Shown here: positions 7,473-21,816 of the stretch, in pieces
Position numbering within the stretch: the first letter of the stretch is position 1
Layout: each line of letters starts with the position of its first letter
Origin: Streptacidiphilus jeojiense
GTDB lineage: Bacteria > Actinomycetota > Actinomycetes > Streptomycetales > Streptomycetaceae
Length of the DNA stretch: 55,362 nt
Assembly: GCF_000719095.1 (NCBI RefSeq)
Contig: NZ_JOEH01000046.1
Span: 1-55,362 of the forward strand
Direction: 5' to 3'
Translations under genes and position numbers: made by a program
The notes under the pieces: generated by a model
Seen by the model: the letters and a program-made list of their open reading frames with translations, nothing else
Database searches by the model: none
Told to the model about the DNA's origin: nothing

Positions 7473-7790
7473 GTGCTGCTTCTTTTCACTCTTGCGATGG
7501 ATTGAGACTGTCTTCAAGGTCGGGTTCGGAAGAGGATTGAGCCGATGACGACGGCGGCTCAGCTGGGCTTGCGGAGCCATCGGCGACCCAGGCCCGATGC
7601 CACCTGAGGCGTATGCGGCGCGGGGCCGGCGGACCGCCGTGACGTGCCCGAAGCTCATCCATTCCAGAAGTGAGGTGTAATGCCTTACCGTGAAGGATTC
7701 GCTGATTCCAGCCCACTTGTCAAATGAACGTTCTTCCACTCACCTGCACCGTCACGCGCCTCCGGTCCAGGGCGAATGAGGAGAACGTCA
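7473..7790 (-). promoter_or_regulatory. Promoter region of the SDR gene; no other gene seen
   Basis: On the minus strand a TTGACA (7718-7723) and an AATCCT (7694-7699) are 18 bp apart. The shared element GTGTAATGCCTTAC (plus-strand reading) follows at 7675-7688, close to the expected transcription start. This gives a 5' leader of about 200 nt before ATG 7472. The remaining bases up to the stop of the alcohol dehydrogenase show no gene. Confidence 0.6.
7675..7688 (-). promoter_or_regulatory. Shared GntR-type operator, site A
   Basis: GTGTAATGCCTTAC is identical to the element in front of the second dipeptidase gene (20481-20494), and the flanking promoter bases are also alike. It lies just downstream of the -10, the classical place for a repressor site. 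Assignment to the GntR protein at 21016-21708 is inference. Confidence 0.6.
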
Positions 7791-8828
7791 TCAGGGCGCG
7801 ATGATGGTGACGCCGCCCGTGCCACCCGCGCGGCCCATCGCGGCCAGAGCCGCTGGAGCGGCGTTGAGCGGGATGACGGCGGTCACCAGGAGGTCGGGGC
7901 GCAGGACACCGGAGCCGACCAGGTCCAGCATCGGGGGGTAGGCGTGAGCAGCCATGCCGTGACTGCCCAGCAGTTCGAGCTCGAGGCCGATCACCCGGCT
8001 CATCGGGACGAGCGCGTCCTGTGGCAGCAGCCCCACCTGGACGTGGCGGCCGCGGCGGCGAAGGGAGCGGACGGAGGCGGCGCAGGTAGGCGGCGATCCG
8101 AGGGCGTCGAGGGAGACATGGGCGCCGCCGCCGGTGAGCTCGCGCACGACCGCTGCCGGATCGTCGACGTCTGAGGCGGTCACCTGGACGCAGTGCGCGG
8201 CGCCGAAGCTCCGCGCCAGGTCCAGCGCCTGGGGGGAGAGGTCGAGCGCGACGACGCGGGCTCCGGAAGCTGCGGCGATCATGACGGCGGACAGCCCGAC
8301 TCCGCCGCATCCGTACACCGCGACCCATTCCCCCGCGGCCACACGGCCGTGCGCGACGACCGCCCGATAGGCTGTGGCGAACCGGCAGCCGAGCGATGCC
8401 GCGGTAGCGAAGGACAGGTCCTCGGGAAGCGCGACCAGGTTGACGTCGGCGTGGTCCAGAGCCACGTAGTCGGCGAAGGAACCCCAGTGGGTGAATCCTG
8501 GCTGGGTCTGCCGCTCGCACACCTGCTGCTGGCCTGCCGCGCAGGCCCGGCACGTTCCGCAGGCGCAGACGAAGGGAACCGTGACCCGGTCTCCCGGGCG
8601 CCACCGTTCCACCCGGCTGCCCACCGCCTCAACGACGCCGGCGAGTTCGTGGCCGGGCACATGGGGCAGGGAGATGTCGGGGTCGTGGCCCATCCAGCCG
8701 TGCCAGTCACTGCGGCACAGGCCGGTGGCCTCTACCCGGACCACCACACCGTGCGGTGCCGGACTCGGGTCCGGCACCTCCCGTACCTCGGCGAGCTCCC
8801 CATACCGCTCGAACACCGCTGCCCGCAT
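7791..8828 (-). CDS. Zinc-dependent alcohol dehydrogenase (MDR family)
   Basis: 345 residues from ATG 8828. A longer open frame upstream has no family similarity. The catalytic zinc ligands are C in GLCRSDWHGW and the HVPGHELAG histidine and glutamate. The structural zinc cysteines are in CACGTCRACAAGQQQVC. The Rossmann motif is VYGCGGVGLSAVMIA. These features place it with zinc-type alcohol/polyol dehydrogenases using NAD(P). It is the last gene of a minus-strand set after GNAT and NSAR, 94 bp downstream of NSAR. Its substrate is unknown. The ribosome site is weak, so the exact start is less certain than the family. Confidence 0.87.
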   Translation of the reverse strand: MRAAVFERYGELAEVREVPDPSPAPHGVVVRVEATGLCRSDWHGWMGHDPDISLPHVPGHELAGVVEAVGSRVERWRPGDRVTVPFVCACGTCRACAAGQQQVCERQTQPGFTHWGSFADYVALDHADVNLVALPEDLSFATAASLGCRFATAYRAVVAHGRVAAGEWVAVYGCGGVGLSAVMIAAASGARVVALDLSPQALDLARSFGAAHCVQVTASDVDDPAAVVRELTGGGAHVSLDALGSPPTCAASVRSLRRRGRHVQVGLLPQDALVPMSRVIGLELELLGSHGMAAHAYPPMLDLVGSGVLRPDLLVTAVIPLNAAPAALAAMGRAGGTGGVTIIAP

Positions 8829-8922
8829 CCGTTCGACCCGCCACTTCTCGCTCGTTCCGGCGCTCCGGCCGGAACACTGGCTGACTGATTCCCAGAGATC
8901 GTGCCCTGGATGACACCGGACT

Positions 8923-10065
8923 TCATGTCGAGGGGACTGGAGCAGCGCGGGCCTCCGCACGCCGGACGGTTTCGCGGCGGACGGTCAGCTCGGCGAGTAC
9001 CTCGGGTATCGGGGTGACGCCGATCCCGCGACCAGCGGGGACGTCGATCCGACCGTCGACGACGGTGAAGGGATCGGTCAGGTCCTGGCGGAAGTACCGG
9101 TCGGAGCCGGCGATGTCGGACGGCAGGGTGAAGTTGGGCAGCGCGGCGAGCGCCAGGTTGGCCGCCCGGCCGATGCCGGTCTCCAGCATCCCGCCAGCCC
9201 AGACCGGCACCCCGGCCGCAGCGCAGACGTCGTGTATCCGACGCGCCTCCAGGTAGCCGCCCACCCGGCCCGGCTTGATGTTGACGATGCGGCAGGCGCC
9301 CGTCGTGATCGCCTGGTGTGCTACGGCAGCCGAGGTGATCGACTCGTCCAGACAGATCGGCGTCTGCAGGCCGGCGGCCGCCAGGTGCGCGTGGCCGGCG
9401 ATGTCCTCCTCCGGCAGTGGCTGCTCGATCAGCAGCAGGTCGAAGCGGTCGAGGACACGCAGGGTGCGCAGGTCGTTGCGGGAGTAGGCGGCGTTGGCGT
9501 CGACCTGGAGGAGGGTCTGGTCACCGAAGCGATCGCGGACGGCGGCGACCGGCTCGATGTCCCAGCCGGGCTCGATCTTGAGCTTGATCCGGGCGTATCC
9601 GGCGTCGAGGTAGCCGTCGACCGCGTCCAGCAGCTCGGGGATCGAGTCGTGGATCCCGACCGAGACGCCGGAGCTGACCGAGGGCTGGACGGCCCCCAAG
9701 TACTCGGCCAGCGGCATGCCGGCGGAACGGAGCTGGGCGTCCAGGACTGCCGTCTCCAGTGCAGCCTTGGACATCCGGTGTCCGTGCACTGCAGCCAGCG
9801 CCGGGGCGACAGAGGCTGCCGTCACGTCCGGGAGCGCGAGCAGCCGGGGCAGCAACTGGTCGACGAGCGCCCGGTGAGCGGCCTCCGTGTACTCGCTGGA
9901 GTACAGGGGGTCGGCCAGCGCCACACACTCGCCCCAGCCCTCGGCACCGTCGGCGACGACGCGGACGAGCAGCACGTCACGGCGGGTCTGGGTACCGAAG
10001 GAGGTGCGGAAGGGGGTCACCAACGGCATGTCGAGTCGCAGCAGCTCAACACAGTCGATCTTCAT
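8923..10065 (-). CDS. N-succinylamino-acid racemase / o-succinylbenzoate synthase family enzyme
   Basis: 380 residues, enolase superfamily. All catalytic residues are visible: K161-x-K163 (IKLKIE), metal ligands D189 (QVDANAAY), E214 (IEQPLPEE) and D240 (CLDESI), and the second-face lysine K264 (NIKPGRVGG). No other menaquinone gene is nearby. A GNAT gene ends 6 bp upstream on the same strand. In known systems (Geobacillus) a GNAT succinyltransferase and NSAR act together to convert D- to L-amino acids through N-succinyl intermediates. This context favours racemase over o-succinylbenzoate synthase, although the family is often bifunctional. Confidence 0.9.
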   Translation of the reverse strand: MKIDCVELLRLDMPLVTPFRTSFGTQTRRDVLLVRVVADGAEGWGECVALADPLYSSEYTEAAHRALVDQLLPRLLALPDVTAASVAPALAAVHGHRMSKAALETAVLDAQLRSAGMPLAEYLGAVQPSVSSGVSVGIHDSIPELLDAVDGYLDAGYARIKLKIEPGWDIEPVAAVRDRFGDQTLLQVDANAAYSRNDLRTLRVLDRFDLLLIEQPLPEEDIAGHAHLAAAGLQTPICLDESITSAAVAHQAITTGACRIVNIKPGRVGGYLEARRIHDVCAAAGVPVWAGGMLETGIGRAANLALAALPNFTLPSDIAGSDRYFRQDLTDPFTVVDGRIDVPAGRGIGVTPIPEVLAELTVRRETVRRAEARAAPVPST

Positions 10066-10071
10066 GCGGTT

Positions 10072-20991: not shown

Positions 20992-21015
20992 TCATCCAGG
21001 TGACCAGCGCTCGGT

Positions 21016-21708
21016 TCAGGAGTCGGCTTCGGAGCGCCCGGCCCAGATGCCGCGGGTGTGCGCCAGGTGCTTGCGCATGAGCTGGGAGGCCAACTCGCCG
21101 TTGCCCGACTCGATGGCGTCGATGATGTCGAGGTGCTCCTCGCCGGAGCGGGTCAGCTCTCCCTGGTCGGCCAGCTTCTGCAGGCCCTGCATCCGAGCCT
21201 GGTCGCGCAGCTGTCCGATGATCGTCACCAGGCGGCGGTTGCCCAGCAGTTCAAGCAGGCCGAGGTGGAACTGTCGGTCCAGGTCGAGGAAGGCGGTGAG
21301 GTCGCCCTCGCGCGCGGCATCGGTGATCTCCTGCGCGAGCTGCCGGAACCGTGGCACCGGCGCCCCGTCCAGGGCCTGGACCACTTCGGCCATGGCCGGC
21401 ACCTCCAGCATGGTGCGCAGCCGAAAGATCTCCTCGAGGTCGTGGTCGGTGAGCACCGGGACTCGGAACCCCCGGTTACGGATGACCTCGACGATACCCA
21501 GGTTGGCGAGGTCCATCACCGCCTCGCGGACCGGGGTCACCGAGACGCCGAGTTCCGCGGCCACGGTGATGACGCTAGTCACCTGCCCCGGTTCGATCTG
21601 GCCCAGCACGATCTGCGTCCGCACAGCCTCCCGGGCCTGCTCGCGCAGGCTGATCGACTTGAGTTGGGGAGTGCGGGCGGCCGGTGCCGCCGGGCGAGAG
21701 TTGGTCAC
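21016..21708 (-). CDS. GntR family regulator with FCD domain
   Basis: 230 residues from GTG 21708. The winged helix-turn-helix at about 20-85 reads LREQAREAVRTQIVLGQI, then VAAELGVSVTPVREAVMDL and the GIVEVIRNRGFRV wing. The C-terminal all-helical FCD domain (about 95-220) has metal/ligand-type residues in FRLRTMLEVPA, DRQFHLGLL and GEEHLDIIDAI. FCD members respond to carboxylic acids and amino acids. It faces the ketimine-reductase/DadA operon, and the complete palindrome TAAGGTGTAATACCTTA lies in the gap. It is the best candidate to bind all four copies of that element in this locus. Confidence 0.93.
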   Translation of the reverse strand: MTNSRPAAPAARTPQLKSISLREQAREAVRTQIVLGQIEPGQVTSVITVAAELGVSVTPVREAVMDLANLGIVEVIRNRGFRVPVLTDHDLEEIFRLRTMLEVPAMAEVVQALDGAPVPRFRQLAQEITDAAREGDLTAFLDLDRQFHLGLLELLGNRRLVTIIGQLRDQARMQGLQKLADQGELTRSGEEHLDIIDAIESGNGELASQLMRKHLAHTRGIWAGRSEADS

Positions 21709-21766
21709 GCCTCATACATAACACGAAAGGCCCACAGCGTCGACGCACTTCCACATCGGGCCCGTA

Positions 21767-21783
21767 TAAGGTGTAATACCTTA
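21767..21783 (+). promoter_or_regulatory. Shared GntR-type operator, site D (complete palindrome)
   Basis: TAAGGT-GTAAT-ACCTTA, 6-bp arms around a 5-bp centre, 33 bp upstream of the ketimine-reductase ATG and 58 bp from the GntR start. The core GTGTAATACCTTAC at 21771-21784 matches sites A and C at 13 of 14 bases. FadR/FCD-type GntR proteins bind sites of this general form. Confidence 0.65.
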
Positions 21784-21816
21784 CTTGCAGTTGTGCCTAC
21801 TCGAAGGCTGGATGCC

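What the first reader, a model, noticed from the sequence alone, without database searches (positions are those of the whole stretch)
7675..21784. A local GntR regulon: one 14-bp element in front of four transcription units
GTGTAATRCCTTAC occurs at 7675 (SDR), 20481 (dipeptidase-like copy B) and 21771 (ketimine reductase-DadA), with a degenerate copy at 16683 (dipeptidase-like copy A). In the first, second and fourth of these it lies just downstream of a TTGACA / AATnCT promoter on the minus strand with 17-18 bp spacing. At 21767-21783 it is a full palindrome beside the GntR/FCD gene. This was read directly from the sequence; GntR binding is inferred. It links a general SDR 9-15 kb away to the dipeptidase and D-amino-acid genes, so the locus is one controlled system.
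Basis: partly seen in the sequence, partly recalled or inferred. Interest (0 to 1): 0.8.

Follow-up and report, generated by a model that had tools for sequence, protein, structure and literature searches.

The report
A GntR switch for amino-acid scavenging
Four transcription units in one stretch of an actinomycete genome carry the same DNA switch beside a GntR-type regulator gene, and the same regulator-switch pair recurs in other actinobacteria beside genes for taking up and converting proline-like or mirror-image amino acids and peptides, so it is very probably a real control circuit, for which no description turned up in the papers searched.

Summary
Confirmed and extended. The 14-mer is part of a 19-bp operator, GTAAGGYATTACACMTYAC (minus strand), at 7670-7688, 16678-16696 (degenerate), 20476-20494 and 21766-21784. 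In the 9.155-Mb genome its degenerate form (up to 2 mismatches) occurs only at these four places. TTGACA-N17/18-AATNCT occurs four times in the genome; three lie directly upstream of operators. An operator lies upstream of GntR in 21 of 21 loci (window plus 20 relatives, GntR 66-84% identical); 17 of 20 relatives have further ones, before importer genes (15) or proline racemase genes (2). Searching 394 class genomes with the DNA pattern alone found four genomes of another family where the site lies beside a 45-47% identical GntR followed by an OCD ketimine-reductase gene; the three examined further add an M19-like gene and a divergent oligopeptide-type transporter. Best reading: a GntR/FCD repressor of proline-type/D-amino-acid and peptide scavenging. 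SDR control rests on this genome alone. 'One controlled system' is too broad: the GNAT-racemase-ADH genes lack the operator. Binding, expression and ligand are untested.

The parts
21016..21708 (-). GntR/FCD regulator (230 aa), presumed repressor of the four units and of itself
   Evidence: Pfam GntR and FCD above cut-offs; no other match at E<=1e-40 in this genome
21766..21784 (-). operator 4, between GntR and OCD (GTAAGGTATTACACCTTAT)
   Evidence: operator upstream of GntR in 21 of 21 loci
21817..22737 (+). OCD/mu-crystallin family, probable ketimine reductase; nearest solved relative a delta1-pyrroline-2-carboxylate reductase (6t3e)
   Evidence: no NCBIfam equivalog reaches its cut-off
22682..24064 (+). 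DadA-type FAD oxidoreductase (start codon uncertain, overlaps OCD end)
   Evidence: Pfam DAO; best NCBIfam model is D-amino acid dehydrogenase, below its cut-off; nearest solved relatives glycine oxidases
20476..20494 (-). operator 3, in front of M19-like copy B
20499..20527 (-). promoter TTGACA-17-AATCCT of copy B
20468..20531 (-). 64-bp promoter-operator block of copy B, 86% identical to 16670-16733
19341..20351 (-). M19-like copy B (336 aa); lacks HxD and bridging Glu
16678..16696 (-). operator 2 (degenerate, GTAAGGTATTAAGCATCAC), in front of M19-like copy A
16701..16729 (-). promoter TTGACA-17-AATGCT of copy A
16670..16733 (-). 64-bp promoter-operator block of copy A
15370..16380 (-). M19-like copy A (81% identical to copy B); start at the Met matching copy B's
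14446..15327 (-). DapB-like reductase, probably in the copy A transcription unit (42-bp gap)
   Evidence: operon inferred
7670..7688 (-). operator 1, in front of the SDR
7694..7723 (-). promoter TTGACA-18-AATCCT of the SDR
6402..7472 (-). extended SDR (356 aa), probably alone in its unit (gene 5225-6328 is convergent)
16805..18901 (-). MFS transporter downstream of copy B; no operator of its own; membership uncertain (gap of about 440 bp; start inferred)

Best explanation
The four elements are operators of the GntR/FCD protein encoded at 21016-21708. Without inducer a dimer binds the 19-bp site. At the SDR and the two M19-like genes the site starts 4-5 bp after the -10 hexamer and should straddle the transcription start, so bound protein would block initiation or promoter escape. 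Between GntR and OCD it lies in the divergent promoter region, so the protein would also regulate itself. A proline-type or D-amino-acid-derived compound, or a cyclic imine made from it, would release the protein and switch on OCD-DadA (amino or imino acid to imine, then to the L-form), the M19-like hydrolases with the DapB-like gene, and the SDR. Shown: the sites, their uniqueness in the genome, the promoter sequences, and conservation with related regulators and related genes. Inferred: binding, repression rather than activation, autoregulation, ligand, substrates and operon extents.
For: 19-mer: only 4 places in 9.155 Mb, 0 control hits. Operator upstream of GntR in 21 of 21 loci and further operators in 17 of 20 relatives, before SNF symporter, MFS, polar amino-acid ABC or BrnQ genes (15 loci) or proline racemase (2). 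In the L047 genome the second operator is on another contig, before an SNF symporter gene. Pattern-only search of 394 class genomes: 9 with a match; of the 6 not met before, 4 (one family, three of them one genus) have a 45-47% identical GntR followed by OCD at the site; the 3 of these 4 that were extended have an M19-like gene next and a divergent SBP_bac_5 ABC system. G433: exact site between an OCD-GntR pair and a DadA-like gene, followed by MFS, M14-, M19- and S15-type genes. In 11 of 21 core regions TTGNNN-17-TACCTT runs into the operator towards the divergent gene. Negative control: 0 of 17 paralogue loci at up to 4 mismatches.
Against: No binding, expression or ligand data. Copy A's operator is degenerate in its right arm. 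M19-like and SDR genes were found in 0 of the 20 close relatives' loci. L051's operator is weak (3 mismatches) and those of L053-L055 are altered (2). The FadR-type core GT-N3-AC holds at only 1 of the 4 window sites (17 of 21 core sites). The window's OCD promoter lacks the TTGNNN-17-TACCTT layout, as do 9 relatives. A consensus scan finds no sigma-70-type promoter in 6300-22800; AATNCT is not a TANNNT hexamer. DadA-type genes at 63-74% identity are in only 9 of 20 relatives (3 more loci end at that side). Two of the 9 class genomes and two of the 9 family genomes with a match show no such genes beside it.
Confidence: 0.8

Rival explanations
1. The element is an operator of this GntR, but the protein activates, or both activates and represses, rather than acting as a plain repressor.
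For: Some FCD regulators activate, depending on site position; the HypR paper discusses this for FadR and CitO (PMC6608401, passages).
Against: At the SDR, M19A and M19B, and at the L048 MFS promoter, the site begins 4-5 bp downstream of the -10 hexamer, a position that fits blocking.
Confidence: 0.1
2. Only the GntR-OCD site is functional; the other three are relics copied along with duplicated promoters.
For: M19A and M19B promoters share 64 bp at 86% identity and the SDR promoter is related to them; copy A has a degraded right arm.
Against: The leaders between promoter and gene are unrelated while the promoter-operator block is kept; the SDR and M19B sites match the degenerate 19-mer without mismatch; in relatives further operators stand before importer genes, once on another contig.
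Confidence: 0.06
3. The repeated element is a promoter or leader-RNA feature not bound by GntR.
For: Cassette conservation extends 7 bp past the operator (ACCGCAG) in M19A, M19B, L037 and L041.
Against: The element is also present without that promoter in the GntR-OCD regions; no Rfam family reaches its gathering score in the window; it is near-palindromic; it tracks the GntR orthologue across genomes.
Confidence: 0.03
4. Chance similarity in a composition-biased genome.
For: Within the window alone the 3-mismatch count is only modestly above shuffles; the 14-mer's reversed control has 3 genome hits against 8.
Against: 4 of 4 genome hits of the 19-mer within 14 kb, 0 control hits; conservation across families.
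Confidence: 0.01

Closest known systems
HypR regulon of Streptomyces coelicolor (SCO6294; PMC6608401, abstract and passages seen)
   Same: GntR/FCD-type repressor, DadA-type enzyme, imino-acid catabolism, several separate promoters, a peptide-degrading enzyme (putative collagenase) among the targets.
   Different: Reported motif CTNTGC(A/C)ATGTCAC; route with Pyr4H2C deaminase and a three-subunit D-hydroxyproline dehydrogenase; no OCD reductase in the passages seen. Here a 19-bp near-palindrome and an OCD gene as nearly constant partner.
FadR-subfamily regulons of Suvorova et al. 2015 (PMC4494728, passages and section 10 seen)
   Same: GntR-type regulators binding palindromes with GT/AC; the GntR-OCD site has GGT-ATT-AC (GT-N3-AC).
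   Different: The element extends to 19 bp with GTAAGGT and ACCTTAC arms, its main dyad is centred one base away from that core, and the core is incomplete at 3 of the 4 window sites. 'Proline', 'D-amino' and 'dipeptid' have 0 occurrences in that main text.
Proline racemase / t3Hyp dehydratase / pyrroline-2-carboxylate reductase neighbourhoods (eLife 2014, PMC4113996, passages seen)
   Same: Same kinds of enzyme: OCD-type Pyr2C reductase with proline-racemase-superfamily, DAAO-type enzymes, transporters and peptidases.
   Different: The passages assign enzymes, not a regulator or operator; 'GntR' and 'dipeptidase' have 0 occurrences in its main text.

Membership tests
GntR family, FCD subfamily | N-terminal GntR wHTH and C-terminal FCD domain above Pfam cut-offs | tested here: met
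   GntR 46.4 bits (cut-off 27), FCD 95.3 bits (cut-off 24.3)
GntR family, FadR-type operator | palindromic operator with GT-N3-AC core | tested here: inconclusive
   GT-ATT-AC at 1 of 4 window sites (OCD); SDR and M19B have GC-ATT-AC, M19A has GT-ATT-AA; 17 of 21 core sites have it; consensus from PMC4494728
Divergent, self-controlled catabolic regulator | operator in the intergenic region between regulator and catabolic gene | tested here: met
   upstream of GntR in 21 of 21 loci; in relatives the divergent gene is OCD in 14, DadA/DAO-type in 5, only OCD fragments in 1
HypR regulon | HypR motif CTNTGC(A/C)ATGTCAC at the operators | tested here: inconclusive
   compared by eye only: a few shared letters, not the motif; HypR protein not aligned
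Pyr2C/ketimine reductase (OCD superfamily) | closest characterised relatives are pyrroline- or piperideine-2-carboxylate reductases | tested here: inconclusive
   best PDB hit 6t3e delta1-pyrroline-2-carboxylate reductase, 1.9e-31; no NCBIfam equivalog reaches its cut-off
Peptidase M19 dipeptidase | metal ligands HxD, bridging Glu, two His, Asp (recalled) | tested here: not met
   two His and Asp kept in 120 of 120; HxD in 0 of 120; Gln at the bridging Glu in 119 of 120; alignment to solved dipeptidases
Repressor | loss of the regulator raises target expression | not testable with these tools
   needs a mutant

The most novel reading that the evidence does not exclude
A new FCD-GntR regulon, spread over several actinobacterial families, in which control follows the operator while the genes behind it are exchanged: a promoter-operator cassette of about 60-70 bp is shared by non-homologous genes (M19-like and SDR genes here, MFS importers in Streptomyces curacoi, S. 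lomondensis and S. sp. AA1529), so the regulon grew by copying the cassette and by swapping genes behind it, around a nearly constant OCD core. The M19-like 'dipeptidases' it controls form a subfamily with a different active site and probably a different reaction.
Probability: 0.4. Interest if true: 0.6.

Novelty: new member of a known kind. Interest (0 to 1): 0.45.

Why it matters
It gives a GntR-family protein of no described function a precise operator, a target list and a likely metabolic theme, with only four sites in 9 Mb, which makes it cheap to test. It shows importers, peptidases and racemases that change from species to species behind one operator and a nearly constant enzyme, a direct view of how a bacterial regulon gains and loses members. 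It also flags a widely annotated 'dipeptidase' subfamily whose metal-ligand positions do not fit the label.

Tried and rejected
RNA leader or riboswitch: no Rfam match at gathering score in the window. Plasmid copies of the promoter cassette: none (86-bp query, distant mode). Another genome with close M19-like copies to test that target: none in 391 order genomes (E<=1e-110) or 374 class genomes (E<=1e-120) apart from the window's own; only 5 candidates per genome were scored there, and 7, so absence is not absolute. The nearest listed protein (88%, Streptacidiphilus sp. BW17) could not be reached as DNA. Chance clustering: rejected. The whole stretch as one control unit: rejected because of intervening regulators. 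Prior description: paper searches (20 of 420 listed), 49, 53, 61, 65, 66 in the open-licence library gave HypR and enzyme papers but, in listings and passages seen, no regulon with this operator; subscription papers and RegPrecise were not searchable.

Limits. Genome searches used degenerate patterns, not a weight matrix. The cassette comparison has one unrelated promoter family as control (L044, L045, L049), left the TTGACA and -10 hexamers unmasked and used single-base shuffles. OCD was queried one base out of frame; OCD identities quoted come. Gene calls in relatives come from a simple script, so gene ends are approximate. In one search, 2 of 4 paralogue proteins were read on the wrong strand and were not used.
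Full report
What was checked. The 14-mer is where it was said to be: exact at 7675, 20481 and 21771, two mismatches at 16683. In the whole 9,155,087-base genome at two mismatches there are eight hits, four of them these, and three in the reversed control. Aligning the sites shows a longer element; on the minus strand it reads GTAAGGCATTACACCTCAC (SDR, 7670-7688), GTAAGGTATTAAGCATCAC (copy A, 16678-16696), GTAAGGCATTACACATCAC (copy B, 20476-20494) and GTAAGGTATTACACCTTAT (GntR-OCD, 21766-21784). 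The degenerate 19-mer GTRAKRYATTACACMTYAC with up to two mismatches has four hits in the genome, exactly these, and none in the reversed control. With R at position 13 and three mismatches, seven background places appear, against four control hits. The Poisson chance of the original clustering is about 6e-11.

Promoters. Upstream of the SDR, copy A and copy B operators lie TTGACA-18-AATCCT, TTGACA-17-AATGCT and TTGACA-17-AATCCT. This signature occurs four times in the genome, three of them here. The operator begins 4-5 bp after the -10 hexamer, so it should straddle the transcription start. A general sigma-70 consensus scan finds nothing in 6300-22800. Towards the gene divergent from GntR, TTGNNN-17-TACCTT, with TACCTT inside the operator, is found in 11 of 21 core regions, not in the window.

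Genes. GntR/FCD 21016-21708; OCD/mu-crystallin 21817-22737; DadA-type 22682-24064; M19 copy B 19341-20351; MFS 16805-18901; M19 copy A 15370-16380; DapB-like 14446-15327; YhgE/ABC2-type 13014-14369; GNAT 10072-11331 (start probably internal); N-acylamino-acid racemase/o-succinylbenzoate synthase family 8923-10065; zinc ADH 7791-8960; SDR 6402-7472. A PucR-type gene lies on the plus strand within 10948-12651, divergent from GNAT-racemase-ADH, and an AsnC/Lrp-type gene at 5225-6328 converges on the SDR. Of the units in this stretch only the SDR, copy A, copy B and GntR/OCD have the operator.

Relatives. Of 42 loci found with the GntR protein, 20 are 66-84% identical, in Streptomyces, Nocardiopsis, Glycomyces, Glutamicibacter and Paeniglutamicibacter. 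With the window, 21 of 21 have an operator at up to three mismatches within 119 bp upstream of GntR; L051 is weak (3 mismatches), L053-L055 altered (2 each). The divergent gene there is OCD in 14 relatives, DadA/DAO-type in 5 (L040, L043, L053-L055) and OCD fragments in L050; an OCD-family gene is somewhere in the locus in the other 19. A DadA-type gene at 63-74% identity is present in 9 of 20; three more loci end at that side. 17 of 20 have one or more further operators, 21 in all: before SNF symporter, MFS, polar amino-acid ABC or BrnQ genes in 15 loci and before a proline racemase gene in L052 and L056. That racemase has Cys at both catalytic positions (sequence; positions recalled), and its best solved match is a proline racemase. 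For L047 the second operator is on another contig, before an SNF symporter gene 92% identical to that of L046; L050, from the same assembly as L044, and L051 have none in the locus. A cis-3-hydroxyproline-dehydratase-like gene, below the NCBIfam cut-off, is downstream in L042, L044, L046 and L049.

Controls. In 17 loci of genus paralogues (39-46% identity, about 3.6 kb each) there is no site at up to four mismatches; of the 22 distant loci, six have one four-mismatch hit, none within 1 kb of the regulator. In 394 genomes of the family, 6 have the orthologue (E<=1e-70) and 9 the operator (up to 1 mismatch); all 6 are among the 9. By their coordinates, four of the 6 are the genomes of L037, L041, L042 and L048, one is the window's own, and G071 is new. 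Of the other 3, G433 has an exact site between a divergent OCD (54%)-GntR (46%) pair and a DadA-like gene; G466 and G167 have one-mismatch hits without these genes in the 3-kb loci.

Discovery by DNA alone. In 394 class genomes the pattern GTRAGGYATTACRCMTYAC with one mismatch hits 9: three known (G000, G071, G083), four of another family (G688, G706, G744, G752; three of one genus) and two (G842, G871) without the genes. In those four the site lies beside a 45-47% identical GntR followed by OCD. Three of the four were extended: each has GntR-OCD-M19-like (41-43% to copy B, with the same non-canonical pattern, DGTCP) on one side and a divergent SBP_bac_5 ABC system on the other. The operator there is doubled with a 7-bp offset, giving a 26-bp dyad. 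In G433 the DadA-like operon goes on with MFS, M14-type, a canonical M19 (with HND) and an S15 X-Pro-peptidase-type gene. On plasmids, of three M19-like homologues' surroundings examined, R. leguminosarum has OCD- and DadA-type genes nearby, Microvirga a partial DadA-type match and S. medicae neither.

Mechanism. Best reading: GntR represses by occupying the start region of three promoters and the divergent region beside its own gene, and is released by an imino- or D-amino-acid-type ligand; then the M19-like hydrolases, OCD-DadA and the SDR are made. Binding, repression, ligand and substrates are inferred. The proline theme rests on proline racemase, Pyr2C-reductase-like OCD, hydroxyproline-dehydratase-like and X-Pro-peptidase-type genes in relatives; in the window itself the substrate could be another D-amino acid. 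In FadR-type terms the core GT-N3-AC is present at 1 of 4 window sites and 17 of 21 core sites, so the exact register of binding is open.

Cassette sharing. The 60 bp upstream of the operator are similar among the SDR, M19A, M19B and three MFS promoters of S. curacoi, S. lomondensis and S. sp. AA1529 (15 pairs, z 4.3 to 18.6 against shuffles, lowest for SDR versus L037). Against the ABC promoters of L044, L045 and L049, which have the same layout, z is 0.1 to 4.2. Copies A and B share a 64-bp block at 86% while their leaders are unrelated. In L037, L041 and L048 the cassette follows the GntR gene, as copy B's does here, which suggests that the gene behind a resident promoter was swapped and the cassette then copied. 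This is an inference from few cases.

M19-like subfamily. In copy B and the 119 other listed homologues (120 listed of 714 hits) the canonical HxD is absent in all, Gln replaces the bridging Glu in 119 of 120, and a Cys-Pro stands there instead in most (Cys in 115 of 120). The nearest solved structure, 2i5g, also lacks HxD and the Glu. So 'dipeptidase' is a family label here, not a shown function.

Literature. Open-library searches led to the HypR paper (abstract and passages), the GntR motif survey (passages and section 10), the AlkR and Atu1419 papers (passages) and the eLife neighbourhood paper (passages); nothing seen describes this operator. Verdict: a real, conserved and, as far as these searches reach, undescribed regulon of a known kind.

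Noticed in passing
15370-16380 and 19341-20351: Both M19 'dipeptidases' and their listed homologues (120 proteins in all) lack the HxD metal motif, 119 have Gln for the bridging Glu, and most have a Cys-Pro instead: the annotation of this subfamily is doubtful.
   Followed up: partly
20689-20991: Isolated 100-aa ORF matching PF05651 (Diacid_rec), perhaps a remnant of a CdaR/PucR-type regulator, between GntR and copy B.
   Followed up: no
8923-11331: GNAT and N-acylamino-acid racemase-family genes are adjacent (6-bp gap), resembling, from recall, the N-succinyl route that converts D- to L-amino acids; no operator of this regulon.
   Followed up: no
16670-16733 and 20468-20531: Promoter-operator block kept at 86% while the leaders of about 260 and 87 nt between block and gene homology are unrelated.
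   Followed up: partly
L155:9523-9548, L156:9769-9794, L157:9532-9557: Operators doubled with a 7-bp offset give a 26-bp dyad, about GTTAGGYGTAA-N4-TTACRCMTAAC, in another family; possibly two dimers.
   Followed up: partly
L037:10785-10861, L041:10781-10879, L048:1881-2001: Two different operators in tandem in front of the same MFS gene, 58-102 bp apart.
   Followed up: partly
window as a whole: Closest M19-like protein is from Streptacidiphilus sp. BW17 (88%), so the unnamed genus may be Streptacidiphilus; not tested further.
   Followed up: no
25677-28081: Strictosidine-synthase-like and amidohydrolase genes next to a TetR gene beyond the regulon.
   Followed up: no
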